NCBI GenBank assembly: GCA_002690215.1
Contig: NZDS01000029.1
Coordinates: forward strand, 6,522-56,082
Direction of reading: 5' to 3'
Origin: Rhodospirillaceae bacterium
GTDB taxonomy: Bacteria; Pseudomonadota; Alphaproteobacteria; UBA2966
Length of the DNA: 49,561 nt
The notes below the pieces were generated by a model that searched no databases, was not told where the DNA came from, and saw nothing but the letters and a program-made list of their open reading frames with translations. Shown here one piece after another: positions 17,483 through 35,015 of the stretch. Positions within the stretch are counted from its first letter, which is position 1, and each line of letters starts with the position of its first letter. The translations under genes were made by a program, and so were the position numbers.

Positions 17483-17498
17483 CACTCAGGAGCCAATC

Positions 17499-18653: not shown

Positions 18654-18683
18654 TAGCCACCTGCGCACTCTCAGGAGGGGTTT

Positions 18684-19838
18684 ATGGAATTTTCCCTCAG
18701 CGACGACCAGATCGCCATCCAGGATACGGCCCGGCGTTTTGCCACCGATCGCCTTGCGCCCGACTACCAGAAGCGCGAAACGGATGGCGGTTTCGACCGC
18801 GACCTGCTGCAGGAGATGGGGGGGCTGGGCCTGATCGGCATCAGCCTGCCCGAAGAATACGGCGGCCTGGAGCAGGATTCCGTTACCACCGGAGTGGTCA
18901 TTGAGGCCATCGCCCAGGGCGACATCAACGTCAGCTACGTCCAGCTCATCAGCAACCTGTTGGGCACCATCGTGACGCAGCACGGCAATCCCGAGCTGGC
19001 CGCCGAAGTGGTACCCAAGCTGTGTTCGGGAGAGGTCTTGATGGCGCTCGGCCTGACCGAGCCCGGCGGTGGCTCGGACGCCGCGAATTTGCGCCTCAAG
19101 GCTCGACGCGAAGACGACGTCTACATCCTCGACGGCGAAAAGACCTCGATCTCGATGGCCGACCAGTCACAGGAAATCATGGTGCTCGGCCGTAGCGGCG
19201 CGACCGACGAGAAAGCCCATGGCATCACCGCCTTCCTGGTGCCCCTGGACGCCCCGGGCATCAGCACCGGCCGCTTCGAGGACTTGGGGGCGACTGTGGT
19301 TGGCCGGGGTTCGGTTTTCTTCGACAGCGTTCGCGTCGATGCCGAGCGCCGCCTGGGCAAGGAGGGCGACGGCTTTCGCCAGATCATGAGCGGCTTCGAT
19401 TACAGCCGGGCGCTGATCGGCCTGCAGTGCATCGCCACCGCCCGGGCCTCGCTGGAAGAAACCTGGGAGTACGTCACCCAGCGCCAGGCCTTTGGCCAGC
19501 CCATCGCCCGATACCAGGGCGTGACCCAGCCGCTGGCCGAGGCCGAGACGCTACTGGAGGCGGCAAGGCTGCTCTGCTTCAAGACGCTCTGGCTGCGCGA
19601 CAACGAGTTGCCCCACACCTCAGAGGCGGCGATGTGCAAGTGGTGGGCACCGCAGGTCGCCTTCGACGTCATCCACCGCTGCCTGATCACCCACGGCCAC
19701 TACGGCTACGCCAAGGACCTGCCCCACCAGCAGCGCCTGCGCGACGTGCTCGGTGCGGAGATCGGCGACGGCACCGAGCAGATCCAAAAGATGGTGATCT
19801 CGCGCGAAAAGATCGGCCGCGTGGCGGTCCCTTATTAG
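18684..19838 (+). CDS. Acyl-CoA dehydrogenase, alicyclic acyl-CoA type (tandem copy 3)
   Basis: Third 384-residue member of the tandem, starting 30 bases after copy 2 behind a strong AGGAGGGG ribosome-binding sequence. Domains and motifs follow copy 2: SLSDDQIAIQDTARRFATDR, TEPGGGSDAANLRLKA, FDYSRALIGLQCIATARAS and IGDGTEQIQKMVISREKIGR, with Asp362 at the catalytic-base position. A small difference next to that site (GAEIGDGT instead of GLQIGDGT) may tune specificity. The strong Shine-Dalgarno suggests this is the most translated copy. It is followed after 12 bases by an enoyl-CoA hydratase, which would hydrate its product. Confidence 0.9.
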   Translation: MEFSLSDDQIAIQDTARRFATDRLAPDYQKRETDGGFDRDLLQEMGGLGLIGISLPEEYGGLEQDSVTTGVVIEAIAQGDINVSYVQLISNLLGTIVTQHGNPELAAEVVPKLCSGEVLMALGLTEPGGGSDAANLRLKARREDDVYILDGEKTSISMADQSQEIMVLGRSGATDEKAHGITAFLVPLDAPGISTGRFEDLGATVVGRGSVFFDSVRVDAERRLGKEGDGFRQIMSGFDYSRALIGLQCIATARASLEETWEYVTQRQAFGQPIARYQGVTQPLAEAETLLEAARLLCFKTLWLRDNELPHTSEAAMCKWWAPQVAFDVIHRCLITHGHYGYAKDLPHQQRLRDVLGAEIGDGTEQIQKMVISREKIGRVAVPY

Positions 19839-20639: not shown

Positions 20640-20709
20640 ATGTCAGAGGTCAGTGGTCAGATGACAGAAACCCGATCTCTGAAATCTGACATCTGAAGTC
20701 TGGCATCTA
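20637..20709. repeat. Nested imperfect inverted repeats between convergent genes
   Basis: TAGATGTCAGA at 20637-20647 pairs with TCTGGCATCTA at 20699-20709 (10 of 11). Inside, CAGATGACAGA at 20658-20668 pairs with TCTGACATCTG at 20685-20695 (10 of 11), and further partial GGTCAG copies lie between. Both outer arms contain a stop codon, that of the enoyl-CoA hydratase on the plus strand and that of the MerR-type gene on the minus strand. It looks like a bidirectional terminator built from a repeated GTCAGA/TCTGAC unit, possibly a REP-like element. Confidence 0.6.
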
Positions 20710-21147
20710 AGCTGCGAGCTTCTCCGCCTCGCTCGTCACCTCCTCGAGAATCGGCTGCATGTCGAGGACCAGGGCGAAAGCCAGGCCGTCCTTGCCGCTG
20801 AGCTCGATCAGCGCTGCCGGATCGTCACGGAAAAAGGCCCGCTCGCCATCCGTCATGAGAAAGCGTGCCGGCAGGCGGCCCGGTTCGATGCCCTGCATCA
20901 GCTTGGCATAGGCCGCCTGCACCCGACCCAGCCGGGCCACCGGAATGCCGCGTTCGAGCAGCCGATTTAGGGCGCGCAGCAACACGGCGTCAGCGAAACT
21001 GTACAGCCGTTTGCGCCCCCGCCCGGGATTGGGCCGCACCGAGGGCCGCACGATACCGTTGCGGGCCAGGTAGTCGACCATGGTGCCGCTGCGAAAACGC
21101 CCGAGACGGGCCGCCTCTCCGAGCGTGAAGTACTGCCTGAGCGCCAT
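20707..21147 (-). CDS. MerR-type HTH transcriptional regulator
   Basis: The 146-residue protein begins with a winged-helix MerR-like reading head: YFTLGEAARLGRFRSGTMVDYL followed by GRGRKRLYSFADAVLLRALNRLLERGIPV. This is the usual helix-turn-helix plus wing (R-x-Y-S/T) arrangement. The C-terminal half has no cysteine-rich metal-binding loop, so an organic or acyl-CoA effector is more likely than a metal. An AGGAGGAAAATTC sequence precedes the ATG. The gene is divergent from the acyl-CoA synthetase at 21333, and a perfect 20-bp palindrome lies between them. It is the best candidate regulator of the alicyclic acid genes on both sides. The effector is inference. Confidence 0.8.
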   Translation of the reverse strand: MALRQYFTLGEAARLGRFRSGTMVDYLARNGIVRPSVRPNPGRGRKRLYSFADAVLLRALNRLLERGIPVARLGRVQAAYAKLMQGIEPGRLPARFLMTDGERAFFRDDPAALIELSGKDGLAFALVLDMQPILEEVTSEAEKLAA

Positions 21148-21332: not shown

Positions 21333-22946
21333 ATGACCGTGGACAGCCTCAACACCCGGTTCGAAGCTGTCGCGGCGCGAAAGCACGGCGCCGTGGCTCT
21401 GATCTGTGGTGAGCGGGAAATTACCCTCGCCGAGCTCATCGAGGAGGGCCGCCGGGTGGCCGCCGGTCTGGCCGAACGCGGCATCTCGGCCGGCGACCGG
21501 GTCGCCGTCTGGATGCCCAACGCACCTGCCTATTTGGCGTTGCTGCTGGCCTGCGCCCGGCTGGGTGCCATTTGCGTCAACGTCAACAGCCGCTTTCGCA
21601 GCGCCGAGGTTGGCGACATCGTCGGCCGTTCGGGCGCCCGCATGCTGGTTTTCTGGCCGGGCTACCGTGATATTGCCTTTGCCGACATTTTGGCTCAGGT
21701 CGACCCCGAGGTGATCGCCGGGCTCGACGCCGTGGTGAGCTATGGCGAGGAGGACGACGACACGGAAATCACACCGCCGTCGCTGCCCCAGGGCGTGGAC
21801 CATCTGGCGTACGACGAATTGGCGGCAGCGCCGCCCCTTGCGGAAGACCGGGGCGGCCGCAACTGCGGCTTCGCCATCTTCACCACTTCGGGTACCACCA
21901 GCGCGCCCAAATTCGTGCTGCACCGCCAGGCCTCGATCATCGACCACGCCGCCGAGGTGGTGCCGGCTTTCGGCTATGACGCACCTGATACCTCGATCCT
22001 GCTAATGCTGCCGCTGTGTGGCGTCTTTGGCTTCAGCCAGGCCATGGCGGCGCTGCAATCCGGCGCGCCGCTGGTCATGCTGCCGTCGTTCGACGAGGTG
22101 GTGGCGGCCCAGGCCATCCGGCGCTACCAGGTGACGCAATGCAACGCCGGCGACGACATGATCGAGCGCCTGCTGGCGGTCTACGACGACCCCGTGCCCT
22201 TCCCATCGCTTCGCTTCATGGGTTTCGGCGCCTTCAACGCGCCGGCCGAGCAGACGGTTCGCCGTGCCGAGCAGCGTGGCCTGACGCTTTGTGGCGTTTA
22301 TGGCATGAGCGAGGTGCAGGCGCTGTACGCCATTTCCGATCCCTCCTGGCCTGCCGACAGGCGCTCGCAGGCCGGCGGTCTGCTGATCTCGCCGCGGGCC
22401 GAGGTGCGCGTGCGTGACAACGAAAGCGGCGAGCTTCTGCCGCTCGGCGAAACCGGCGAGCTCGAGCTCAAGGGCCCGAGCCTGATGCACGAATACTTCG
22501 AAAACCCTGAGGCCAACCAAAAGACCCTGACCGAGGACGGCTTCGTGCGCAGCGGCGATCTGGGCTTCTTGATCGAAGGGGGGTTCGTCTTCCTCACCCG
22601 CATGGGCGACGCCATCCGCCTGGGCGGCTTCCTCGTCAGCCCGGCCGAGATCGAGGAGGTGGTCGAGGCCCACCCCAGCGTCTCGGCGGTGCAAGTGGTG
22701 GCTGTCGAACACGAGGGCCGCAACCGGCCCATCGCATTTGTTCTGGCCGAAGCGGATTCCGAAGATGCTTTCGACGAGGAAGCAGCCTACGCCTTCTGCC
22801 GCAGCCGCATCGCCAAATTCAAGGTGCCGGAGCGGTTTTTCGCCGTCGACGAATTCCCTGCCACCATCGGCCCCAACGGCACCAAGATCCAGAAGGGCAA
22901 GCTGCGCGAGATGGCGCTCGAACGCTTACAGGGAGGCACAGCGTGA
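21333..22946 (+). CDS. AMP-dependent acyl-CoA synthetase (ANL superfamily)
   Basis: A 537-residue adenylate-forming ligase. The phosphate-binding loop reads TTSGTTSAPKFV (Ser186 onward), with Ala-Pro-Lys at the end instead of the usual G-x-P-K. The A5 motif YGMSE begins at about residue 323, SGDLG gives the Asp that binds ribose, and the A10 lysine is in GTKIQKGKLRE. The ATG at 21333 is preferred over 21306 because it starts the folded region, although neither has a strong ribosome-binding site. It activates a carboxylic acid to its CoA ester; the context suggests an alicyclic or aromatic acid. It overlaps the next gene by four bases (GTGA). Confidence 0.88.
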   Translation: MTVDSLNTRFEAVAARKHGAVALICGEREITLAELIEEGRRVAAGLAERGISAGDRVAVWMPNAPAYLALLLACARLGAICVNVNSRFRSAEVGDIVGRSGARMLVFWPGYRDIAFADILAQVDPEVIAGLDAVVSYGEEDDDTEITPPSLPQGVDHLAYDELAAAPPLAEDRGGRNCGFAIFTTSGTTSAPKFVLHRQASIIDHAAEVVPAFGYDAPDTSILLMLPLCGVFGFSQAMAALQSGAPLVMLPSFDEVVAAQAIRRYQVTQCNAGDDMIERLLAVYDDPVPFPSLRFMGFGAFNAPAEQTVRRAEQRGLTLCGVYGMSEVQALYAISDPSWPADRRSQAGGLLISPRAEVRVRDNESGELLPLGETGELELKGPSLMHEYFENPEANQKTLTEDGFVRSGDLGFLIEGGFVFLTRMGDAIRLGGFLVSPAEIEEVVEAHPSVSAVQVVAVEHEGRNRPIAFVLAEADSEDAFDEEAAYAFCRSRIAKFKVPERFFAVDEFPATIGPNGTKIQKGKLREMALERLQGGTA

Positions 22947-23314
22947 ACCTGGCGGCCCGCTTCGAGCGCCTGCCCGACTTGGTCAACGGCGATAGCGATT
23001 TGCTGCGCCGTGGCCGCTTCCTGACAGTCGATTTCCTGGTTGAGATCGGTGAAGAGGCGTTCCAGGTTTCGGTCGACCAAGGTCGCATCGCGCTGAGCCG
23101 CGGTCCGGCGCTATTGCGCTCGCACTGCTTTTCCATCGCCGCCAGCGAAGCCGCCTGGCAGGCCCACTGGACCGACCCACCGGCGCCCGGCTGGCATGAC
23201 CTGTTTGCCATGACAAAATCCGGCGCCGCCCGCATCGCCGGCGATCTGCAGCCCTTTATGGCCAATCTCCAGTACCTCAAAGACGTGCTGGCAAAACCCA
23301 GATCGGCAATCTGA
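22943..23314 (+). CDS. Small protein, possibly SCP2-like
   Basis: The 123-residue product starts at a GTG overlapping the upstream stop (GTGA), and its own stop overlaps the next ATG (TGATG), so it is translationally coupled on both sides. The sequence LVNGDSDLLRRGRFLTVDFLVEIGEEAFQVSVDQGRIALSRGP followed by SIAASEAAWQAHWTDPPAPGWHDLFAM resembles the beta-sheet lipid-binding fold of SCP2-like proteins. I cannot identify it by a strict motif. A carrier or presenting protein for a hydrophobic acyl group used by the flanking ligase and hydrolase would fit. Confidence 0.7.
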   Translation: MNLAARFERLPDLVNGDSDLLRRGRFLTVDFLVEIGEEAFQVSVDQGRIALSRGPALLRSHCFSIAASEAAWQAHWTDPPAPGWHDLFAMTKSGAARIAGDLQPFMANLQYLKDVLAKPRSAI

Positions 23315-24168: not shown

Positions 24169-25671
24169 ATGGATATCTCAACCTGGATCGAACGCTGGGC
24201 CGCCTTCGCCCCCGAGCGCCCGGCGCTGCGCTACGCGGGCCAAGATATCTCGTACGCCTCCCTGGCCGAACGTATCGAAAATCTGGCCGGAGCGCTGGCG
24301 GGCCTCGGTGTGGAGCGCGGCGACCGGGTGGCGCAGCTCGGCTACAACAGCCCCGAGATCATCGATCTGTTGTTCGCCTGCGCCCGCCTGGGGGCCATCA
24401 TGGTACCGCTGAACTGGCGCCTGGCCGGGCCCGAAATTGCTTACATCCTCGACGATAGCGAGCCCAAGGTAGTCGTGGCCGAGCCCGATTTCATCGACCT
24501 ATTGGGGGAGTTGCGGGCGGATCGTAAGGGCATTGCCTGGATCGCCTATGAAGGTGCCGAAGACTGGCAGGACTATCGCTCGCTGCTGGCCGGCGCCGGC
24601 GCGCCGCCACGGGACGGCGACCCCGATGATGCGCTGCTGATCGTCTACACCTCCGGCACCACGGGCCGGCCCAAAGGAGCGGTGCTGGACCAGAACGCGC
24701 TATTCCACAACGCCGTCAATGGCGCCGCCGCCTTCGATCTTGGCAGCCAGGACCGCGTGCTTACGGCCATACCCATGTTTCACGTCGGCGGCCTCAACAT
24801 CCAGACCACACCGGCGCTGCATGCCGGCGCCACGGTGACGATCCTGCAGAAGTTCGATCCCGGCGAGATGCTGGCCACCATCGCCCGCGAACGCATCACG
24901 CTGGCCATCGCCGTGCCGGCCATGCTGGTGGCCTTGATCGGCCATCCCAACTGGGGCAAGACCGATCTTTCCAGCCTCAGGTGCCTGACCTCGGGCTCCT
25001 CCACCGTGCCCGACGCCCTGATCACCGCCGTGCTGGCCCGCGACGTAGCCGTCAGCCAGGTCTACGGCAGCACCGAGACGGCACCCACTGTCATCGTCGG
25101 GCTGCCCAGCAAGGATCCCGACAAAGCCGGCTCCTGCGGCCATGCGGCATTGCACTGCCAGGCCCGCATCGTCGACGACGATGGAAACGATGTGCCGGCC
25201 GGCACGGCCGGCGAGATCGTGGTGCGCGGCGCCAATATCATGCGCGAATACTGGCGCCAGCCTGAGGCCACGAGTGAGGCCTTGCGTGAGGGCTGGTTTC
25301 ACACCGGGGACATCGGCCACCGGGATGCCGACGGCGCCTTTTACGTCGACGACCGCAAGAAGGATATGATCATCTCGGGCAGCGAGAACATCTACTCGGC
25401 CGAGCTCGAATTCGTCCTGGCCGAGTGCCCGGAACTGGCCGAATCAACAGTCGTCGCCCGGCCCGACGAACGCTGGGGCGAAGTGCCGGTGGCGGTCGTT
25501 GTCAAGCGCCCGGACAGCGAGATAACGAAAGAAGGGGTCCTCGATCTCTTCGTCGACCGCTTAGCCCGCTTCAAGCACCCCAAGGATGTGATCTTCGCCA
25601 CGTCCCTGCCTCGAAACGCCATGGGCAAGGTGCTAAAGTTCGAGGTCCGCGAGATGGTGCAGAAAGGCTAA
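24169..25671 (+). CDS. Fatty-acid/aryl-CoA ligase (ANL superfamily)
   Basis: A 500-residue, complete acyl-CoA ligase. The phosphate loop YTSGTTGRPKGA lies around residues 160-171, A5 YGSTE at 299-303, the ribose-binding Asp in HTGDIGH, the hinge region DDRKKDMIISGSENIYS, and the catalytic Lys in PRNAMGKVLKFE. All canonical residues are present, unlike the divergent ligase at 21333 and the degenerate domain at 26593. An AAGGAATTCGACC sequence precedes the ATG. It forms acyl-CoA for the dehydrogenase/hydratase/BadI enzymes encoded upstream; the acid itself is unknown. Confidence 0.92.
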   Translation: MDISTWIERWAAFAPERPALRYAGQDISYASLAERIENLAGALAGLGVERGDRVAQLGYNSPEIIDLLFACARLGAIMVPLNWRLAGPEIAYILDDSEPKVVVAEPDFIDLLGELRADRKGIAWIAYEGAEDWQDYRSLLAGAGAPPRDGDPDDALLIVYTSGTTGRPKGAVLDQNALFHNAVNGAAAFDLGSQDRVLTAIPMFHVGGLNIQTTPALHAGATVTILQKFDPGEMLATIARERITLAIAVPAMLVALIGHPNWGKTDLSSLRCLTSGSSTVPDALITAVLARDVAVSQVYGSTETAPTVIVGLPSKDPDKAGSCGHAALHCQARIVDDDGNDVPAGTAGEIVVRGANIMREYWRQPEATSEALREGWFHTGDIGHRDADGAFYVDDRKKDMIISGSENIYSAELEFVLAECPELAESTVVARPDERWGEVPVAVVVKRPDSEITKEGVLDLFVDRLARFKHPKDVIFATSLPRNAMGKVLKFEVREMVQKG

Positions 25672-25676
25672 GCGCC

Positions 25677-26588
25677 TTGGACAACAAGACCAGCAACACC
25701 ATAGATTTCGCCGCCGCCCGGGAAGCCATAAGATCCTATTCGCTGAAGCGCGGCGCCGTGGCTGTGGGCATCTGCGAGGCCGAACTGGTGGAACGCATCG
25801 CGCCGCCGGGTTTCGGACCCCTGGCCATACTGCCTGGTGCGCGTTCGGTGATCTCGATCGGCGTCACCGGCTGCACGCGGGGCACTTGGAAATCCACCGC
25901 CAAGGTCATGACTTTCATCGGCAACAGCGTCGGGCCGATCTACCGCGCCTCGTTCGGACTTTCCTTCTTCATCGAGAAGACGTTTGGCTACCCCTCGATC
26001 TTCGTGCCACCGCACGTCGATCCGGAATACGGCGCTCGCGTTCCCATCCAGAGCCTCAAGCTGCATGCCGAACTGGCCGGCATCGGCGCCCGCTCGATGG
26101 CCGGCGATATCCTGCTGCATCCCGAATATGGCTTGCTCTACTACGGCTCGGTAATCACCGAGATGCCGCTGCCGACAGATCCACCGATGGCCGAGAACCC
26201 CTGCCCGGCCCCGGCCTGCGTCGAGCTCTACCGCCGCCAGGGCCGCACACCGTGTCAAAAGTTCTGTCCCGTCGACTGCCTCAGCGGCACCATCGACGAC
26301 ACCGGCGAGATCGACGAGATGGTTTGCGACATGGCGCGCTGCGCCGAGATGTGCCAGCAGTACGAAAACATGCCCAACATAATCGACGACGCGATCACGG
26401 CGGACGAGGTGCTGGACCGCGAAGAGGCTCTTTACGGCGCCGAAAGCCAGGCATTTTTTTACAAAGTCACGTCTGCCGTCGGCGCCACCCACGCCCAGTG
26501 CTTCGAATGTATGCGCGTCTGCCCGGTGGTCACCGGCGCCCCCCAGGCTGACCCCATCCGTATGGGCGAAGCGGCGCGAAAGGCATAA
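25677..26588 (+). CDS. QueG-like 4Fe-4S protein (epoxyqueuosine reductase/reductive dehalogenase-related)
   Basis: The 303-residue product starts at a TTG six bases after the ligase stop, with AAAGG upstream. No ATG is available before the conserved region. The N-terminal half matches the QueG/RdhA-type core (YSLKRGAVAVGICEAEL, PGARSVISIGV), a fold that binds cobalamin in QueG. Cysteines then cluster between residues 176 and 282: CPAPAC, CQKFCPVDC, CDMARCAEMC and CFECMRVCP, enough for two 4Fe-4S clusters. It is not a true QueG in context. Its place at the head of a corrinoid methyl-transfer cluster suggests an electron-transfer or corrinoid-dependent reductase role. No Tat signal is seen, so it is cytosolic. 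Confidence 0.78.
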   Translation: MDNKTSNTIDFAAAREAIRSYSLKRGAVAVGICEAELVERIAPPGFGPLAILPGARSVISIGVTGCTRGTWKSTAKVMTFIGNSVGPIYRASFGLSFFIEKTFGYPSIFVPPHVDPEYGARVPIQSLKLHAELAGIGARSMAGDILLHPEYGLLYYGSVITEMPLPTDPPMAENPCPAPACVELYRRQGRTPCQKFCPVDCLSGTIDDTGEIDEMVCDMARCAEMCQQYENMPNIIDDAITADEVLDREEALYGAESQAFFYKVTSAVGATHAQCFECMRVCPVVTGAPQADPIRMGEAARKA

Positions 26589-26592
26589 ATCC

Positions 26593-27834
26593 ATGCCCTA
26601 CGGTGTCAGCGAGCGCATGGTCGAGAGCTACGGCGAGGTGATCTGGGACCTCAGCTTGAATATCCAGCGCCGCCGCGGCGACGCCGTGCGCAAGCTCGAC
26701 TTTGCCGCCATCGAGGCCCAGCGCGAAGGCACGGGCCTGAGCGACGCCGAGATCGCCGGCCGCCTGGGCCTGGCACCGGAACAGGTCACCTTCATTCGCG
26801 TGATCAGCGAACGCCGGCGCTTTCGCCGCGACCAGTACCGTAAGCTCTACGCCCTGGGCGGCGGCAAGCGTTACCGCGAGGGCGAGTGGTTTGATCCCGA
26901 CCGCGATCTGACGCTAAGGCCCGAGGCCGTGCCGCTGCGCGATGCCATGACGCTGGCGCCCGAGCGCATCGCAGCCTACACGGCTGCAGGCTTGTGGGAC
27001 GGCGAGACTTTGGGATCGTTGTTGCAACGCCGAGCCGCCGAGGCGAGCGACAGCCCGGCGTTCGTAGGCGACAAGTCGCTCAGCTACGACGCACTCGCCG
27101 AGCGCGTCGCCCAAGCCGCCGGCGCCCTGGCAGCAGCCGGCCTGGGACGCGGCGAAGTCGTGGGAATTGTCAGCGACGATCCGCTCTTCGGCAATCTCGC
27201 CCTACTGGCCTGCGCCTGGTATGGCGCCGTTGCACTACCGCTCTCCCCGGCCCTCGACGGTCGCCAGCGCGCTGCCTTCCTCAGCCTGGCCCGAGCCCGC
27301 CTGGCGCTGGAGGACTATAGCGACCTGGCCGGCGGCGGGCCCTGCCCGCCGCAAGTCCCAAGAGCTCACGCCGCCGACCCCGTGGTGCTGCTAGCTAGCG
27401 GCGAATACCTGGTGCCGCACAGCCACCAGACCCTGCTGGCCGCCGCCCGCGGCCTGGCTGCCCTGGAACCGAACGGTGTGGCAGCGCCTGCCCTGCCTCA
27501 CCTGGCAACTCTGGCCCTGGCAGTGGCGCTGCAGGCCGGGGTGCCGCTGGGTGGTGACAACCTGGTTCTCGAAGAGGACAATCTGCTGCTCGATGGCCAG
27601 AGGATGCCTTTCCTTTCCTGCCCCGAAGCTCCGGCCCTGGCCTGGGGAGATCCACCGCTGGCCCCGCCAGGCGGTGAGCTGCGCAGCGACGGCGAACGCT
27701 ACATCGAAACCCGAGGCCCGGGAGTGGCGCCCGGCTATTACGATAACCCCGTAGCCAGCGCCCGCGCCTTCGACGCCGAGGGCTGGTTCAAAACACCTTT
27801 CAACGGAGATCCAGATGGCCATGACGCCGCGTGA
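26593..27834 (+). CDS. Fusion of an HTH-containing N-terminal domain with a degenerate, truncated adenylation (ANL) domain
   Basis: 413 residues. Residues 1-105 are a charged N-terminal domain with a predicted helix-turn-helix at about 49-72 (LSDAEIAGRLGLAPEQVTFIR). Residues 135-400 resemble the start of an acyl-CoA ligase (PAFVGDKSLSYDALAERVAQ, ACAWYGAVALPLSPALDG). The ATP-binding loop is gone: the aligned stretch reads VVLLASGEYLVPHSHQ. No YGxTE motif exists, and after GYYDNPVASARAFDAEGWFKT the protein stops without the ribose-binding Asp, hinge or catalytic Lys. The end overlaps the next start codon by 20 bases. It cannot be a working ligase; a ligand-sensing or scaffold role is possible. 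I recognise no named family. Confidence 0.75.
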   Translation: MPYGVSERMVESYGEVIWDLSLNIQRRRGDAVRKLDFAAIEAQREGTGLSDAEIAGRLGLAPEQVTFIRVISERRRFRRDQYRKLYALGGGKRYREGEWFDPDRDLTLRPEAVPLRDAMTLAPERIAAYTAAGLWDGETLGSLLQRRAAEASDSPAFVGDKSLSYDALAERVAQAAGALAAAGLGRGEVVGIVSDDPLFGNLALLACAWYGAVALPLSPALDGRQRAAFLSLARARLALEDYSDLAGGGPCPPQVPRAHAADPVVLLASGEYLVPHSHQTLLAAARGLAALEPNGVAAPALPHLATLALAVALQAGVPLGGDNLVLEEDNLLLDGQRMPFLSCPEAPALAWGDPPLAPPGGELRSDGERYIETRGPGVAPGYYDNPVASARAFDAEGWFKTPFNGDPDGHDAA

Positions 27835-28828
27835 ACGTTTTCTCGCCGCCCTGGACGGTCAGCCGGTCGACCGGGTGCCGGTGGCCAACCCCACCTCGAT
27901 CATCACCCGCGGCTTGCAGGAAAAGGCTGGTGTCTTTTTTCCCGAGGCCAACTACGAAGCCGAACCCATGGCCGAATTGGCGTTGGCCGGCCACACGATA
28001 TGCGGCTACGACGCCGTCAGCCCGGCCTTTGGCGCCGGTACGCACGAATCGGCGGCGCTGGGCGTGCCCACACGTTGGGGCGACCGCGACAGCCTGCCGG
28101 CCCAGGAAAAGGCCATCTGGTCGCATCCCGACGAGATCGAGATCCCCGACGATTTCCTCGATCGCCCCTCGGTCAAGTCGGTGATCGACGCCATCCGCCT
28201 GCTGAAAGACGAAGTGGGCGACCGCGTCGCCGTCATCGGCAAGGTGTTCGGCCCCTGGAGCCTGTCCTATCACACCATCGGCTTGCAGAAATTCCTCATC
28301 CAGACCATGAAGGATCCGGGTTTCGTGCATGCCGCGCTGGAGCGCCTGAAACCCATCCCCAAGATGTACGCCCAGGCCCAGATCGAGGCCGGCGCCGACG
28401 CGCTGACCTATGCCTGCCACATCACCGCCGACCTGATCCGGCCCAGCGCCGTACCCGACTACGTGTTGCCCATCCACCAGGAAATGGCGGCCGAGATCGA
28501 TTGCCCGCTGATCCTGCACTGCTGCGGCCGCACCATTGACCGCATCGAGCACTTCAACAAAAACGGCATGGCCGCTTTCCATTTCGAATCGGCCAACGAC
28601 GCCAAGGAAATGCGCGACCAGGCGGACATGGTGCTGATCGGCAACATCAACAACACCAACACCCTGGTTGCCGGTGAGCGCGAAGACGTGCGGCGTGAAG
28701 TCCACTACGCCATAGAGGCCGGCGTCGACATGATCGCCCCGGAATGCGCGGTTCCAGTTACGGCCAAGTTGGAGAACGTCATCGCGGTACGCGACAGCGT
28801 CGACGAGTATTACGACGCACTGCATTAG
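27815..28828 (+). CDS. UroD/MtaA-family cobamide methyltransferase
   Basis: The 337-residue TIM-barrel protein belongs to the uroporphyrinogen-decarboxylase superfamily branch of MtaA/MtbA/CmuA methyltransferases. It starts MTPRERFLAALDGQPVDRVPV, then IGKVFGPWSLSYHTIGLQKFLI. The zinc site of MtaA-type enzymes is present: His235 and Cys237 in LILHCCG, and a third ligand Cys311 in APECAVP. Zinc in these proteins activates a thiol or other methyl acceptor or donor. The arginines and Asp needed for heme-pathway decarboxylation are not recognisable. It lies inside the corrinoid cluster and overlaps the degenerate ligase gene, with GGAG ahead of the ATG. Role: methyl transfer to or from the corrinoid protein; substrate unknown. 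Confidence 0.87.
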   Translation: MAMTPRERFLAALDGQPVDRVPVANPTSIITRGLQEKAGVFFPEANYEAEPMAELALAGHTICGYDAVSPAFGAGTHESAALGVPTRWGDRDSLPAQEKAIWSHPDEIEIPDDFLDRPSVKSVIDAIRLLKDEVGDRVAVIGKVFGPWSLSYHTIGLQKFLIQTMKDPGFVHAALERLKPIPKMYAQAQIEAGADALTYACHITADLIRPSAVPDYVLPIHQEMAAEIDCPLILHCCGRTIDRIEHFNKNGMAAFHFESANDAKEMRDQADMVLIGNINNTNTLVAGEREDVRREVHYAIEAGVDMIAPECAVPVTAKLENVIAVRDSVDEYYDALH

Positions 28829-28839
28829 CGAGAGGCCCC

Positions 28840-29970
28840 ATGGCGGGTGACGATCACATCCTGCTGATCGGAGGCTACGGCAATCTGGGCCGCGGGATCG
28901 CCAGCCTCTTGGCACCCCGCTCCGTGGCACGGATCACCTTGGCCGGACGCAACGGCGATCGCGCGGCTGCCGCGGCCGCGGCCATCAACAAAGATTTACC
29001 GACCGGCCGCGTCGAAGCCCGCTGCCTTGATGTTAGCGATGGCGACGACCTGAAAGCGGCGCTCAAGAGCGTCGACCTGGTCGTGGTCGCCGCCGGCACG
29101 ATCGAGCACGCCGGGAAAGTGGCGGCTGCCGCGCTGGAAGCCGGCGCCGATTACTTCGACGTCCAGCTCTCCTCACTGCAAAAGCACGATGTGCTCGAAG
29201 GCCTGCGCCAGCGGATCGAAAGCGAAGGGCGCTGGTTCGTCAGCGATGGCGGCAGCCATCCGGGCCTACCTGCCGCCCTGGTCCGCCATGCCTCCACCCA
29301 CTTCGACTCCCTCGAAACCGCTCAGGTCGCGATGCTGATGCAACTCGACTGGCGATCGCTGGAATTCTCCCCGACCACGATCGAGGAATTCATCGCCGAG
29401 ATTCGCGATTACCAACCGCTCGTCCTGCAACACGGAAAGTGGCAGGCCCTGGGCTGGCGTGATTTCCGCAGATTCGCCTTCGCTGCACCGTTTGGCGAAC
29501 GCACCTGCACACCGATGTTCCTGCATGAGATGGCCCAGTTGCCATCCCTCATCCCCGATCTCCATGAGACCGGCTTGCACGTCGCCGGGTTCAATTGGTT
29601 CGTCGATTACCTGGTGCTGCCGTTCTCTCTAGCCGCCTTCAAGATCTGGCCCAAATCCCGACGCATCAAGCGTGCCCTCGGCGCACTCATGCATTGGGGT
29701 CTAAAGGCTTTTGCCAAACCGCCTTACGCCATGATCATGGTGCTCGAAGCCAACGGCCGCCGCGCTGGAAGGCCGGCGTCGCTGCGCCTCGAAATAGGCC
29801 ACGAGGACGCATACGTTTTGACCGCCGCAGCGGTAACCTCTTGCCTGCTGCAGAGACTCGACGGTAGCCTCTCCCAGCCCGGCCTCTGGTGTCAGGCCAC
29901 CGTTGTGGACACCGATCGCCTGCTGAACGACCTGCGGGACATGGGCGCCAGCGTCCGCGTCGTCAATTAA
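28840..29970 (+). CDS. Saccharopine dehydrogenase-like NAD(P)-binding protein
   Basis: A 376-residue protein whose N-terminus ILLIGGYGNLGRGIASLL is a Rossmann nucleotide-binding motif. It is followed by LAGRNGDRAAAAAAAI and DLVVVAAGTIEHAGKVAAAALEAGADYFDV, as in the saccharopine dehydrogenase NADP-binding family. The C-terminal half is different from lysine-pathway enzymes and contains a hydrophobic stretch, FNWFVDYLVLPFSLAAFKIW. GAGAGG stands before the ATG at 28840, 11 bases after the methyltransferase stop. It may oxidise or reduce a demethylated product, but this is inference. Confidence 0.82.
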   Translation: MAGDDHILLIGGYGNLGRGIASLLAPRSVARITLAGRNGDRAAAAAAAINKDLPTGRVEARCLDVSDGDDLKAALKSVDLVVVAAGTIEHAGKVAAAALEAGADYFDVQLSSLQKHDVLEGLRQRIESEGRWFVSDGGSHPGLPAALVRHASTHFDSLETAQVAMLMQLDWRSLEFSPTTIEEFIAEIRDYQPLVLQHGKWQALGWRDFRRFAFAAPFGERTCTPMFLHEMAQLPSLIPDLHETGLHVAGFNWFVDYLVLPFSLAAFKIWPKSRRIKRALGALMHWGLKAFAKPPYAMIMVLEANGRRAGRPASLRLEIGHEDAYVLTAAAVTSCLLQRLDGSLSQPGLWCQATVVDTDRLLNDLRDMGASVRVVN

Positions 29971-30028
29971 CCGAGGGATCTGTGTCGCTGCCTGACCTCC
30001 TCAGCCGCCGCCTCTCCCCCCTCTTCGT

Positions 30029-30058
30029 TTGACTCTGTCTGGCCGGCGCGGGTAGATT
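30029..30058 (+). promoter_or_regulatory. Candidate sigma-70 promoter of the corrinoid-protein operon
   Basis: TTGACT at 30029-30034 (five of six to consensus) is followed after 18 bases by TAGATT at 30053-30058 (four of six). A start site would fall near 30065, about 100 bases ahead of the corrinoid-protein ATG. The near-palindromic motif at 30065-30076 then lies right at the transcription start, a good repressor position. Confidence 0.5.
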
Positions 30059-30064
30059 TGGAGC

Positions 30065-30076
30065 CTGATATATTAG
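30065..30076. promoter_or_regulatory. Near-palindrome CTGATATATTAG, copy 1, candidate GntR/FCD operator
   Basis: The 12-mer fits the symmetric pattern CTNATATATNAG and recurs identically at 41015-41026. It stands at the expected +1 of the promoter at 30029-30058. The only regulator encoded between the two copies is the GntR/FCD protein at 37117-37800, so it is the likely binder. Confidence 0.55.
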
Positions 30077-30162
30077 TTGCGCGGAGGCGTACCGGTGGCC
30101 TGGATCGGGGGCGGGCAACCGGCTCCGTAAGGCAAAAAAAGGGCGGAAAAAGGGAGAATCCG

Positions 30163-30798
30163 ATGTCTGTTTCGGACATTTACACGGCGGTTTCGGAGTA
30201 CGACGACGAAAAGGTAACGGAGTTGGTCAACGCCGAAGTGGCAGCCGGCACCGATGTGCAGACCATCCTCAACGACGGCATGATTGCGGCGCTCGACGAG
30301 ATCGGCCGGAAATTCAGCGAGGGCACGCTCTTCGTGCCCGAGATGCTGATGGCCGCCGAAGCGGTGCAGGCCGGTTTGGAGATCATCCGGCCGCTGCTCA
30401 TCGACACCGGCGTCAAACCCGTCGGCTGCGTCGTCATCGGCACCGTCAAGGGCGATCTGCATGACATCGGCAAGAACCTGGTGGCCATGATGCTCGAAGG
30501 TGCCGGCTTCAAGATCGTCGATCTCGGTACTGACGTCGATGCCGACCAGTTCATCGACGCGGCGCATGAGAACGAGGCCGACCTGATCGCTATGTCGGGG
30601 CTGCTCACCACCTCGATGCCCGAAATGGAAAAGGCCGTGGTGGTCATCGACGAGGCCAACAGCACGCGCAACATGAACGTCAAGGTGATGGTCGGCGGGC
30701 CGCCGGTGTCGCAGGACTTCGCCGAACGCATCGGCGCCAGCGGCTACGGCATCGACGCCCCGGGCGCCGTCGATCTGGCCCGCGGCCTGGTTCAATAG
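30163..30798 (+). CDS. Corrinoid-binding protein of a methyltransferase system (MtbC/MttC-like)
   Basis: The 211-residue protein has the two-domain layout of methyltransferase corrinoid proteins. A four-helix cap domain covers about residues 1-85 (EVAAGTDVQTILNDGMIAALDEIGRKFSEG, LFVPEMLMAAEA). A Rossmann-like B12 domain follows with the signature Asp-x-His-x-x-Gly as GDLHDIGKN, where His100 is the lower cobalt ligand. MSGLLTTSMPEM and VMVGGPPVS complete the nucleotide-loop binding site. A GGGAGAATCCG sequence leads to the ATG. It shuttles a methyl group between a substrate-specific methyltransferase (candidates at 27815, 30858 and 41865) and the H4folate methyltransferase at 34122. There is no fusion to a methyltransferase, unlike CmuA. 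Confidence 0.93.
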   Translation: MSVSDIYTAVSEYDDEKVTELVNAEVAAGTDVQTILNDGMIAALDEIGRKFSEGTLFVPEMLMAAEAVQAGLEIIRPLLIDTGVKPVGCVVIGTVKGDLHDIGKNLVAMMLEGAGFKIVDLGTDVDADQFIDAAHENEADLIAMSGLLTTSMPEMEKAVVVIDEANSTRNMNVKVMVGGPPVSQDFAERIGASGYGIDAPGAVDLARGLVQ

Positions 30799-30808
30799 GC
30801 CACACGGC

Positions 30809-30836
30809 GGCCGGCAAGCTGGCCAAGCTGCCGGCC
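30809..30836 (+). other. Intercistronic hairpin after the corrinoid-protein gene
   Basis: GGCCGGCA at 30809-30816 pairs with TGCCGGCC at 30829-30836 around 12 bases. It sits 10 bases after the corrinoid-protein stop, inside the operon. It could stabilise the upstream message and so raise the amount of corrinoid protein relative to downstream enzymes. No T-run follows. Confidence 0.4.
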
Positions 30837-30857
30837 TGAATACTGGAGAAACACGAC

Positions 30858-32015
30858 ATGACCTGGACCCACCGGGAACGCCTGCGCGCGGCACTGAACC
30901 ACGAACAAGCCGACCGCATCCCGATCGACTTCGGCGGGGCCGAGTTCACCTCGATCACGCTGCCCGCCTATGAACGCCTAAAGGCGCATATGGGGGTCGG
31001 CGCGGAAACCCAGGTCATGTCGATCATCCACTCGGCGGCCCATCCCGACGAGAGCATCCTCAAGGAATTCGACGTCGACACGCGCAACATCCAGCCTGGC
31101 GCCTACCAGGGCGGCCATCAGGAATGGGTCGACGATAATCACTACATCGATATGTTCGGCGTCCACTGGAAGCGCACCGAAAAGTCCATGGACCAGCATT
31201 TTCTGCATGTTGATGGGCCGTTCTATGAGGGCGACTTGACCATCGACCGCATCGACGCCTTCGATTGGCCCGACGGAAAAAATCCAGGCCTCGTGGCCGG
31301 CGTGGCCGATCGCGTGCAAGAGATCATGGCAGCCGGCAGCTACGCCCGCGTGCTCTACCTGCCCGGCGGTGTGGTGCACCGCGGCTATGCCATGCGCGGC
31401 TTCGAGAACTATCTTCGCGACCTCTACAGGCGGCCAGAGGCGCTGACCCATCTGATGGACAAGCTTTGCGATTTCTGGGTCGACACCGCCGTCGCCGTGA
31501 TCGAGGCGGCCGGCCCCGAAAACATCGACGCGGTCTATTTCGGCGAGGACCTGGGCACCCAGGAAGGCTGCATGTTCGACCCCGAGGGGATCTACGCCAA
31601 ATCCCTCAAGCCGCGCCACCGGCGCATGGTCGAGACCGTCAAGTCGCGCGCCGACATCAAGATCTGCTTCCATTGCTGCGGCTCGGCCTACCATTTCATC
31701 GACCATCTGATCGACATCGGTGTCGATGCTCTCAACCCGGTGCAGGTGAGAGCCAAGAACATGGAGCCCGAGCGCCTGAAAGAGGAGTTCGGTGACCGCA
31801 TATCCTTCTGGGGCGGCATAGACACCCAACGGACGCTCCCCTTCGGCACGCCCGACGAGGTGCGCCAGGAGGTACGCCACATTATCGACGTACTTGGCAC
31901 GGACGGCGGCTATATCCTCAACAGCGTACACAACATTCAGCCCGAGGTGCCGCCCGAGAACATCGTCGCTATGTTCGACGAGGGCCGCAAACACAGCTAC
32001 GCCCCGGCAAGCTGA
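30858..32015 (+). CDS. UroD-superfamily methyltransferase, His-variant zinc site
   Basis: The 385-residue UroD-fold protein is closely similar to the gene at 41865. It begins THRERLRAALNHEQADRIPIDFGG and contains LNPVQVRAKNMEPERLKEEFGDR and FWGGIDTQRTLPFGTPDEV. The H-x-C part of the zinc site is present at His272 and Cys274 (FHCCG). At the third-ligand position, Cys311 of the MtaA-like gene at 27815 aligns with His358 (SVHNIQPEVPPEN). It follows the corrinoid protein by 59 bases and is probably the substrate-side methyltransferase for it. A heme-biosynthesis role is unlikely given the cluster. Confidence 0.87.
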   Translation: MTWTHRERLRAALNHEQADRIPIDFGGAEFTSITLPAYERLKAHMGVGAETQVMSIIHSAAHPDESILKEFDVDTRNIQPGAYQGGHQEWVDDNHYIDMFGVHWKRTEKSMDQHFLHVDGPFYEGDLTIDRIDAFDWPDGKNPGLVAGVADRVQEIMAAGSYARVLYLPGGVVHRGYAMRGFENYLRDLYRRPEALTHLMDKLCDFWVDTAVAVIEAAGPENIDAVYFGEDLGTQEGCMFDPEGIYAKSLKPRHRRMVETVKSRADIKICFHCCGSAYHFIDHLIDIGVDALNPVQVRAKNMEPERLKEEFGDRISFWGGIDTQRTLPFGTPDEVRQEVRHIIDVLGTDGGYILNSVHNIQPEVPPENIVAMFDEGRKHSYAPAS

Positions 32016-32016
32016 G

Positions 32017-32616
32017 ATGACCGGGCCCCGGCAAACGCTGCTCATCTGCTGCGGCGCCCTGGCCCGCGAAGTCGTGGCACTGGTGCGTGAACAGGGCTGG
32101 GAGCAGCGCATCAAAGTGGAATGCCTGCCCGCCAAGCTGCACATGGACCCCGTGAGCATCCCCGAGGCGGTGCGCCGGAAAATCCAAACCGAGCGCGACA
32201 ACTACGACGACGTGCTGGTGTTCTATGGCGATTGCGGCACCGGCGGCCAGCTCGACGACATGCTCGAAGAGGAAGGCGTCGAACGCATCGACGGTGCGCA
32301 TTGCTACGAGATCTATGCCGGCTCCAGCCAGTTCGCGGCATTGATGAAAGACGAACCCGGCTCGTTCTTCCTCTCCGATTTCCTGGCCCGGCATTTCGAG
32401 CGGCTGGTCTGGCAAGGTCTGGCGCTCGACCGCTTTCCCCAACTGCGCGACACCTACTTCGGCAACTACCGCAAGGTGGTCTATCTGGCCCAGAGCGAGG
32501 ATGGCGAGATGGTCGAATACGCCCGCAAGGCGGCCGACATGCTGGGGTTGGAGTTCGAAATGCGCTACACCGGCATCGGCGGCTATCGGGATTTTCTCGA
32601 AGCCCGCATCGCCTGA
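32017..32616 (+). CDS. DUF1638 domain protein
   Basis: The 199-residue product matches DUF1638: the N-terminal LLICCGALAREVVALV, the hallmark VLVFYGDCGTGGQLDDML, and a C-terminal LGLEFEMRYTGIGGYRDFL. Cysteines in LLICCG, YGDCGTGG and GAHCYEIYAG are conserved-looking and might bind a metal. Genes of this family often accompany corrinoid methyltransferase modules, but no activity is established. It starts one base after the methyltransferase stop (TGAG-ATG), indicating coupled translation. I infer an accessory role in methyl transfer, for example handling a demethylated product. Confidence 0.85.
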   Translation: MTGPRQTLLICCGALAREVVALVREQGWEQRIKVECLPAKLHMDPVSIPEAVRRKIQTERDNYDDVLVFYGDCGTGGQLDDMLEEEGVERIDGAHCYEIYAGSSQFAALMKDEPGSFFLSDFLARHFERLVWQGLALDRFPQLRDTYFGNYRKVVYLAQSEDGEMVEYARKAADMLGLEFEMRYTGIGGYRDFLEARIA

Positions 32617-32665
32617 CCCCGCTAACCACAAAAAGCCAGGCGGATGAAGGCCGGAGGGGCTGAGC

Positions 32666-33130
32666 ATGCGAAGCGCGCGACGCTGGGCGACGCGGCAGGC
32701 CAGATTGCTGGAAGCGGTGTTCGACCTCGTAGACCCCATCCTGCGGGCCCTGCATCCAATCTGGCGGGGAATTGGCTACAAGCGCTTGGAGCGCCCGGCA
32801 GCGGCGATAGAAGCCTTATTCAAGAAGCCGCTGTTCGATTGTCAGATGTGCGGCCGCTGTCAGATTGGCGCCAGCGGCATGACCTGCCCCATGAACTGCC
32901 CCAAAAGTATGCGCAACGGCCCTTGCGGCGGCGTGCGGCCGGACGGCAATTGCGAGATCGAGCCGGCCATGCCCTGCGTCTGGGTCGAAGCTTGGCAGGG
33001 CAGCCAGCGTATGCGTGGCAGCGAGCGCATCAGCGCCCTGCAGCCCGCGGCCGATCACTCTCTGATCGGCACCTCGTCCTGGTTGCGCCACATCCGCGAA
33101 GGCCGCGAGGCGGCGGAGCGCAATGCATGA
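32666..33130 (+). CDS. metV: MetV-like zinc-binding partner of methylene-tetrahydrofolate reductase
   Basis: The 154-residue protein matches the MTHFR C-terminal (MetV-type) domain. The cysteine-rich core runs FDCQMCGRCQ, then GMTCPMNCPKSMRNGPCGG, then GNCEIEP and MPCVW: nine or more cysteines suited to Fe-S or zinc binding. In acetogens MetV forms a complex with MetF and is needed for methylene-H4folate reductase activity. Its stop overlaps the MetF start by four bases (ATGA), supporting a complex here. It is unusual outside anaerobes with methyl-branch C1 pathways. Electron acceptor unknown. Confidence 0.85.
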   Translation: MRSARRWATRQARLLEAVFDLVDPILRALHPIWRGIGYKRLERPAAAIEALFKKPLFDCQMCGRCQIGASGMTCPMNCPKSMRNGPCGGVRPDGNCEIEPAMPCVWVEAWQGSQRMRGSERISALQPAADHSLIGTSSWLRHIREGREAAERNA

Positions 33131-34116
33131 GCGATCCCGGAGCCAGTTATCCGATCCTGCCCGGCCACACTTCCGGCGGCCGGCTCGAGCGTGTGTTGCG
33201 CTCGGGCCGCTTTGCCGTCACGGCCGAGCTCAATCCCCCCGATTCGGCAGATCCCGAAGACACATTTGAGCGCGCTCTGGTGCTATCCCGGGTTTGCGAC
33301 GCCATCAACGCCACCGATGCTTCGGGCGCCAATTGCCACATGTCGAGCGTCGGCATCTGCGCGCTGCTCACCCGGGCCGGCTATTCGTTGGTGATGCAGA
33401 TCTCATGTCGCGACCGCAACCGCATCGCCATCCAGGGCGACGTGTTGGGTGCCGCCGCCATGGGGGTGAGCAACGTCCTCTGCCTGACCGGCGACGGCGT
33501 CGAGGCCGGTGACCAGCCCGGCGCCAAAGCGGTCTTCGATCTCGACTCCATTTCGCTGCTGGAGACCATCCGCTGCATGCGCGACGAAAGCCGCTTTCTT
33601 TCCGGCCGCGCGATTACCAGCCCGCCGCGGGTGTTCCTGGGCGCCGCCGCCAATCCCTTCGCACCGCCCTTCGATTTTCGACCGCTCAGGCTGGCCAAGA
33701 AAGTAGCGGCCGGGGCCCAGTTCATACAGACGCAATACTGCTACGACGTGGCACGGCTGAAGGACTATATGAAGGCGGTGCGCGATCTCGGGCTGGATGA
33801 GCGCTGCTACGTCCTGGTCGGCGTCGGGCCGCTGGCCTCGGCTCGGGCAGCGCGCTGGATCGGCACCAACGTGCCCGGCGTCCACATTCCCGAGAGCACG
33901 ATCGCCCGCCTGGAGGGAGCGGCCGACCAAAAGGCCGAAGGCAAGCGCATCTGCATCGAACTGATCCAGCAGATTCGTGAGATTTCCGGCGTCGCCGGAG
34001 TTCACGTCATGGCCTACCGTCAGGAACACCTGGTGTCCGAAATCATTCTTGAATCCGGCGTGCTGGAAAAACGCCGGCCGGGCTACAGCGAAAAAAATCC
34101 AACCCAAGGAGCATAG
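33127..34116 (+). CDS. metF: Methylene-tetrahydrofolate reductase (MetF)
   Basis: The 329-residue TIM-barrel flavoprotein has FAVTAELNPPDSADPEDTFERAL, the INATDASGANCHMSS segment, MGVSNVLCLTGD (FAD and folate contacts) and QFIQTQYCYDVARLKDYM, the conserved barrel strand of MetF. In this cluster the expected direction is oxidative: methyl-H4folate from demethylation becomes methylene-H4folate for assimilation or further oxidation. The downstream methyltransferase would provide methyl-H4folate. The start ATG overlaps the MetV-like stop. A biosynthetic MetF for methionine is probably encoded elsewhere, but this cannot be checked from the window. Confidence 0.9.
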   Translation: MSDPGASYPILPGHTSGGRLERVLRSGRFAVTAELNPPDSADPEDTFERALVLSRVCDAINATDASGANCHMSSVGICALLTRAGYSLVMQISCRDRNRIAIQGDVLGAAAMGVSNVLCLTGDGVEAGDQPGAKAVFDLDSISLLETIRCMRDESRFLSGRAITSPPRVFLGAAANPFAPPFDFRPLRLAKKVAAGAQFIQTQYCYDVARLKDYMKAVRDLGLDERCYVLVGVGPLASARAARWIGTNVPGVHIPESTIARLEGAADQKAEGKRICIELIQQIREISGVAGVHVMAYRQEHLVSEIILESGVLEKRRPGYSEKNPTQGA

Positions 34117-34121
34117 TTGAC

Positions 34122-35000
34122 ATGACAAAGACCGTTTTGAGCTCACCCAGCAAGGAAGTGGTGATCGGCTTCGATGAGCCCTTCGTCATCATCGGCGAGC
34201 GCATCAACCCGACAGGCCGCAAGAAGCTGGCCGAGGAAATGGCGGCCGGGGATTTGAGCCGCGTCGAGTCCGACGCCCTGGCCCAAATCGAGGCCGGCGC
34301 CCACATGCTGGACGTCAACGCCGGCGTGCCCATGGTCGACGAGGCCGAGTTGATGACCCGCTGCATCAAGCTGGTGCAGGGGCTCACGGACCTCCCGCTG
34401 TGCATCGATTCTTCGGGCGTCGAGGGCCTGCAAGCGGGGCTCGAGGCTTACGACGGCAAGGCCCTGGTCAACTCGGTGACCGGCGAGGAAGAGCGCATGG
34501 AAGCTGTGCTGCCGCTAGTCAAGAAACACGGTGCCGCGGTGGTGGCGATCTGCAACGACGAAAGCGGCATCAGCGAAGATCCCGATGTGCGCTTCGAAGT
34601 GGCCAAGAAGATCGTCGAGCGGGCCGAGGACCACGGCGTGCCGCGGGCCGATGTGCTGGTCGATCCGCTGGTCATGCCAGTGGGCGCCGTCAATCTTTCG
34701 GGGCGCACGGCGCTGGAGATCGTGCGCCGGGCGCGAAATGAGCTGAAGGTCAACACCATTTGCGGTGCCTCCAACGTCAGCTTCGGTCTGCCCAACCGGC
34801 GTGACCTCAACTGCGCTTTCCTCAGCATGCTGATCGGCGCCGGCCTGACCTCGGCCATCGTCAATCCGTTGCACCCCGAGGTCATCAATGCCATCACCGG
34901 GGCCGAGGTTATGCAGGGGTTGGACAATATGTGCATGCGCTGGATCAAGCGCTCGCGCAAGCTGGCCGCAGCAGCCAAAGAGTCGGAAGCGGCTGGCTAA
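34122..35000 (+). CDS. Methyltetrahydrofolate:corrinoid methyltransferase (pterin-binding domain, MtgA/AcsE-like)
   Basis: A 292-residue protein of the pterin-binding/dihydropteroate-synthase fold. Key segments are FVIIGERINPTGRKKLAEEM (the conserved Asn-Pro-Thr-Gly motif), GAHMLDVNAGVP (the Asp-Asn pair contacting the pterin), LCIDSSGVEGLQAGL, ALVNSVTGEEER and GASNVSFGLPNR. The last two motifs match MtgA/AcsE and MetH folate domains. It would move the methyl group from the methylated corrinoid protein to H4folate. It begins six bases after metF with an AAGGAG ribosome-binding sequence. No corrinoid domain is fused, consistent with the separate corrinoid protein at 30163. Confidence 0.92.
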   Translation: MTKTVLSSPSKEVVIGFDEPFVIIGERINPTGRKKLAEEMAAGDLSRVESDALAQIEAGAHMLDVNAGVPMVDEAELMTRCIKLVQGLTDLPLCIDSSGVEGLQAGLEAYDGKALVNSVTGEEERMEAVLPLVKKHGAAVVAICNDESGISEDPDVRFEVAKKIVERAEDHGVPRADVLVDPLVMPVGAVNLSGRTALEIVRRARNELKVNTICGASNVSFGLPNRRDLNCAFLSMLIGAGLTSAIVNPLHPEVINAITGAEVMQGLDNMCMRWIKRSRKLAAAAKESEAAG

Positions 35001-35015
35001 GGCGGGAGCGCCGCT

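What the first reader, a model, noticed from the sequence alone, without database searches (positions are those of the whole stretch)
26593..27834. HTH plus dead adenylation domain fused in one protein
The ANL domain has lost the ATP phosphate loop, the A5 motif, the ribose Asp and the entire C-terminal lid, yet the frame is open for 413 codons and the gene keeps tight spacing in the operon. An HTH-like segment lies at residues 49-72. The end overlaps the next methyltransferase start by 20 bases. A pseudoenzyme acting as an acyl or acyl-CoA sensor would be new.
Basis: partly seen in the sequence, partly recalled or inferred. Interest (0 to 1): 0.6.

Follow-up and report, generated by a model that had tools for sequence, protein, structure and literature searches.

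The report
HTH protein with dead ligase half
A bacterial gene joins a small helix-turn-helix domain, always found next to an uncharacterised iron-sulfur protein gene, to a CoA-ligase that looks intact in its relatives but has lost its catalytic parts here and in three kin genomes; it looks like an old, still-maintained pseudoenzyme rather than a demonstrated sensor.

Summary
ORF 26593-27834 (413 aa) has an HTH-like N-domain (1-105) and an ANL domain without P-loop (A3), A5, A7 Asp, A8 and A10/lid; its end overlaps the UroD gene by 20 bases. Relatives change the reading. Beyond the window's family every fusion complete enough to judge (7 read in full, 5 more by P-loop) is an intact N::ANL ligase, as is a same-genus paralog. 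Only four genomes of two genera carry the dead form: one clade (100/100), in frame, window vs G001 omega 0.21 over residues 106-413. So it descends from a ligase, but is not recent local decay. The N-domain is the constant part: every copy checked (over 20) lies directly behind a remote QueG/RdhA-like Fe-S gene; in 385 genomes both occur in the same 11; 105-127 aa N-only versions exist. An intact ligase sits directly before the Fe-S gene in all four dead loci. Most likely the N-domain is the Fe-S protein's partner and the ANL half a non-catalytic remnant. An acyl or acyl-CoA sensor is unproven and disfavoured: the region that forms the substrate and nucleotide pockets is largely deleted. DNA binding is untested.

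The parts
26593..27834 (+). the ORF: HTH-like N-domain fused to degenerate ANL domain, 413 aa
26593..26907 (+). N-domain (residues 1-105), conserved partner domain of the Fe-S protein; found alone, or fused to intact or dead ANL
26737..26808 (+). HTH-like segment (residues 49-72)
27019..27327 (+). remnant of the ANL N-terminal subdomain (residues 143-245), omega 0.18
27388..27435 (+). degenerate P-loop position (LLASGEYLVPHSHQTL)
27673..27801 (+). remnant of the A6-A7 region (residues 361-403), A7 Asp lost
25668..26588 (+). QueG/RdhA-like Fe-S protein, 306 aa, 8 family-invariant Cys; invariant upstream neighbour of the N-domain
24169..25671 (+). intact stand-alone acyl-CoA ligase just upstream of the Fe-S gene; a 50% identical counterpart sits there in the G002 and G004 dead loci too
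27815..28828 (+). UroD/MtaA-type methyltransferase, overlaps the ORF by 20 bases
20707..21147 (-). divergent MerR-type regulator at the head of the gene run; a conventional regulator candidate

Best explanation
The protein is a pseudo-ligase derived from a fusion family. The N-terminal HTH-like domain is the dedicated partner (subunit, or redox-coupled regulator) of the QueG/RdhA-like Fe-S protein encoded just before it. An ANL acyl-CoA ligase was fused behind it in the wider family; in the window's family the fused ligase lost ATP binding, adenylation and thioesterification, probably because a stand-alone ligase (24169-25671 in the window) sits next to it. What remains is kept in frame, most likely as a non-catalytic structural or interaction piece of the Fe-S/N-domain complex. 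Shown: architecture, intact relatives, single dead clade, Fe-S pairing, purifying selection between window and G001. Inferred: physical partnership, loss of activity, and the role of the remnant.
For: N-domain and Fe-S protein found in the same 11 of 385 genomes, with all 13 close copies adjacent; divergent 113-127 aa N' proteins directly follow tandem Fe-S genes at 36-38% identity; N-only 105-aa proteins follow Fe-S genes in G002 and G004. Seven fusions outside the window's family read in full have all motifs, and the P-loop is intact in every fusion of the f67 order that reaches it. Dead clade monophyletic. Intact ligase before the Fe-S gene in 4 of 4 dead loci and intact same-subfamily ligases elsewhere in those genomes. 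omega 0.21 over residues 106-413, CI 0.15-0.29; neutral drift at this divergence would leave no stop in only about 0.2-4% of simulations.
Against: In G002 vs G004 the dead ANL parts are only 39-48% identical while the N-domain is 88%, the Fe-S protein 93% and the adjacent ligase 88%, which looks like weak constraint. Intact ligases of other kinds also lie upstream of the Fe-S gene in several intact-fusion loci, so the replacement idea is only a correlation. No interaction data exist, and adjacency does not prove a complex. Only two lineages of dead forms are known.
Confidence: 0.5

Rival explanations
1. BzdR-like regulator: the HTH binds DNA and the dead ANL domain binds an acyl or aryl ligand, controlling the catabolic or methyl-transfer genes.
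For: HTH-like helices and basic N-domain in the window (pI 9.8); purifying selection on the ANL remnant; BzdR is a proven HTH plus enzyme-derived benzoyl-CoA sensor (PMC3602430); acyl-CoA metabolism genes nearby.
Against: Pocket-forming segments and lid deleted; HTH-region charge is variable and negative in N-only members; recognition-helix residues Q64 V65 I68 R69 E73 invariant across the family, unusual if operators differ; the gene lies inside a gene run headed by a divergent MerR regulator; intact ligases carry the same N-domain.
Confidence: 0.17
2. Slow erosion: the ANL half is functionless ballast tolerated behind an essential N-domain, on the way to an N-only gene.
For: Fast divergence of the dead ANL parts in G002/G004, which keep different leftovers; graded lengths 508, 472, 413, 406 aa; N-only forms exist.
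Against: omega 0.21 (0.15-0.29) over residues 106-413 in window vs G001, similar to intact neighbour ligases at 0.175 and 0.29; all indels in frame; no stops in four lineages. The 20-base overlap with UroD could itself preserve the frame end.
Confidence: 0.28
3. Assembly or sequencing artefact (frameshift or truncated gene).
For: The genome is a fragmented draft, 245 contigs.
Against: Same architecture, stop position and overlap in an independent genome at 83% identity, and related dead forms in two more.
Confidence: 0.01

Closest known systems
BzdR (Azoarcus), HTH-XRE plus shikimate-kinase-like benzoyl-CoA sensor (PMC3602430)
   Same: N-terminal HTH-like domain fused to an enzyme-derived domain
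   Different: Other enzyme fold; BzdR keeps a ligand-binding fold with Walker A and binds benzoyl-CoA, whereas here the pocket region is mostly deleted and the gene is paired with an Fe-S gene
ANL superfamily acyl-CoA ligases (Pfam PF00501/PF13193; PRK06187, FadD3-like)
   Same: Residues 143-245 and 361-403 derive from this family; sister fusions are intact members
   Different: A3, A5, A7 Asp, A8, A10 and lid lost
QueG / reductive dehalogenase superfamily (TIGR00276, TIGR02486; partner protein)
   Same: Remote sequence similarity and 8 invariant Cys (enough for two 4Fe-4S clusters) in the upstream partner
   Different: Scores far below the family cut-offs

Membership tests
ANL adenylating enzyme (active) | P-loop A3 (S/T)SG(S/T)(T)GxPK | tested here: not met
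   ASGEYLVP at the position
ANL adenylating enzyme (active) | A5 (Y/W)GxTE and A7 Asp | tested here: not met
   A5 deleted; SGD to TPF
ANL adenylating enzyme (active) | C-terminal lid with A8 and A10 Lys | tested here: not met
   absent in all four dead members
ANL adenylating enzyme (active) | common ancestry with ANL | tested here: met
   PF00501 E 3e-15; intact orthologous fusions
HTH DNA-binding regulator (BzdR-like) | HTH domain | tested here: inconclusive
   weak profile hits only and low-confidence model
HTH DNA-binding regulator (BzdR-like) | effector-binding domain with intact pocket | tested here: not met
   about 125 residues between A2 and A6 lost
HTH DNA-binding regulator (BzdR-like) | specific DNA binding | not testable with these tools
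   needs EMSA or DAP-seq
QueG (upstream partner) | score above the TIGR00276 cut-off (200 bits) | tested here: not met
   18.9 bits for the window protein

The most novel reading that the evidence does not exclude
An undescribed two-gene system: a QueG/RdhA-like Fe-S protein with an obligate HTH-like partner that recruits, or was fused to, acyl-CoA ligases, in which one clade turned the ligase into a conserved non-catalytic module, possibly a redox-responsive regulator of corrinoid or acyl-CoA metabolism.
Probability: 0.25. Interest if true: 0.7.

Novelty: new variant of a known kind. Interest (0 to 1): 0.5.

Why it matters
No curated Pfam or NCBIfam model covers the N-domain, and the Fe-S protein scores far below any family cut-off; their near-perfect pairing gives a testable handle on an uncharacterised branch of the QueG/dehalogenase superfamily. 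The series from intact fusion (about 650 aa) through partly decayed (508, 472 aa) to the 413/406-aa form, with N-only (105 aa) proteins alongside, is a compact natural record of an enzyme turning into a non-enzyme.

Tried and rejected
N-domain and Fe-S protein against plasmids: no match. N-domain against a 398-genome phylum sample: none beyond the window's own. The search for related loci in genome contigs returned only ordinary ligases matching the A6-A7 region. Full-length AF2 model unusable (pLDDT 38); family alignments were not sent to the structure tool because its rules list only other locus sources, and no Foldseek search was run on the low-confidence models. No Rfam element in the window. 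Literature searches for ANL pseudoenzymes or HTH-ligase fusions found nothing in the held library. Artefact explanation rejected by the ortholog. A general link to methyl transfer was rejected: the corrinoid cluster next to the gene was seen only in the window's genus.

Full report
Observation. The ORF is exactly as described: 26593-27834, 413 aa, ending 20 bases inside the UroD/MtaA gene at 27815. Pfam sees only the first quarter of AMP-binding (residues 144-239); NCBIfam ligase models add residues 361-402. Aligned with the intact same-genus paralog, A3, A5, the A7 Asp, A8 and A10 are lost and 304 of 543 ligase columns remain.

Relatives. A same-genus genome (G001) has a syntenic ortholog of 406 aa at 83% identity with the same overlap, and separately an intact 648-aa N-domain::ANL paralog. 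In 385 genomes of the class the N-domain occurs in 11 (G001 was not in that sample). Outside the window's family it is fused to an ANL ligase: seven read in full are intact with all motifs, two (G021, G757:C22) are cut by a contig end and cannot be judged, and in the order of G079 ten of eleven genomes carry the N-domain; all nine of their retrieved fusion stretches that reach it show an intact P-loop. The dead forms (413, 406, 508, 472 aa) occur only in G000, G001, G002 and G004 and form one clade (100/100 on Fe-S plus N-domain; 84/98 on ANL), with the intact G001 paralog as sister at 84-96% bootstrap. N-only proteins of 105 aa exist in G002 and G004.

The constant partner. In all 14 retrieved loci the gene directly upstream is a homologue of the 306-aa Fe-S protein 25668-26588. 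Searching the same 385 genomes with that protein returns the same 11 genomes, 13 of 13 close copies adjacent to an N-domain. More distant Fe-S paralogs (36-38%), in tandem, are followed by a 113-127 aa N' protein that the N-domain profile recognises. The Fe-S family has 8 invariant cysteines and remote similarity to epoxyqueuosine reductase (PDB 5d08 E 1.2e-4; TIGR00276 matched by 14 of 15 members far below cut-off). In three f67 loci examined the order is RdhA-like gene, ligase, Fe-S, N::ANL; Pfam or NCBIfam confirmed the RdhA-like gene in two of them (L045, L046), and in L047 it is inferred from the same position and size.

Selection. Window vs G001: omega 0.11 for the N-domain and 0.21 (0.15-0.29) for residues 106-413, against 0.13 for the Fe-S gene and 0.175 and 0.29 for two intact neighbour ligases. 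Neutral simulations at comparable divergence leave no stop in 0.2-4% of runs. G002 vs G004 instead shows strong conservation of N-domain and Fe-S protein but 39-48% identity in the dead ANL, so constraint on the remnant is uneven.

Mechanism. The data favour an N-domain that works with the Fe-S protein, with a ligase half that became dispensable where an intact ligase lies directly before the Fe-S gene (4 of 4 dead loci) and others of the same subfamily lie elsewhere. Whether the pair is an oxidoreductase, a corrinoid-linked activator or a redox-responsive regulator is open. A BzdR-type acyl-CoA sensor (PMC3602430) is the nearest functional precedent but is disfavoured because the pocket-forming region is mostly deleted; which segments form the pockets is taken from general knowledge of the ANL fold, not from a structure of this protein.

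Limits.

Noticed in passing
window 16328-19838: Three tandem similar acyl-CoA dehydrogenase genes (384 aa each); the syntenic G001 locus has a single copy, so a lineage-specific expansion or loss.
   Followed up: partly
window 27815-36983: Corrinoid methyl-transfer cluster: UroD/MtaA, B12-binding corrinoid protein, second UroD, MTHFR, pterin-binding methyltransferase and RACo activator.
   Followed up: partly
L065-L070, L092-L098: Tandem Fe-S, Fe-S, N' (113-127 aa) genes, with a PaaK-like ligase-looking reading frame alongside in L065 and L066 (recognised by eye, not by a family search): a divergent stand-alone version of the Fe-S plus HTH-like pair.
   Followed up: partly
L045, L046, L091: RdhA-like (reductive dehalogenase family) genes upstream of the Fe-S/N-domain pair; the L045 protein passes the TIGR02486 cut-off, L046 matches PF13486, L091 was recognised by eye from its C-terminal end.
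   Followed up: partly
window 22943-23314: 123-aa protein without any Pfam or NCBIfam match, 77% identical in G001, between a ligase and a hydrolase gene.
   Followed up: no
window 32644-34116: MTHFR-like protein with about 170 extra N-terminal residues without a Pfam match.
   Followed up: no
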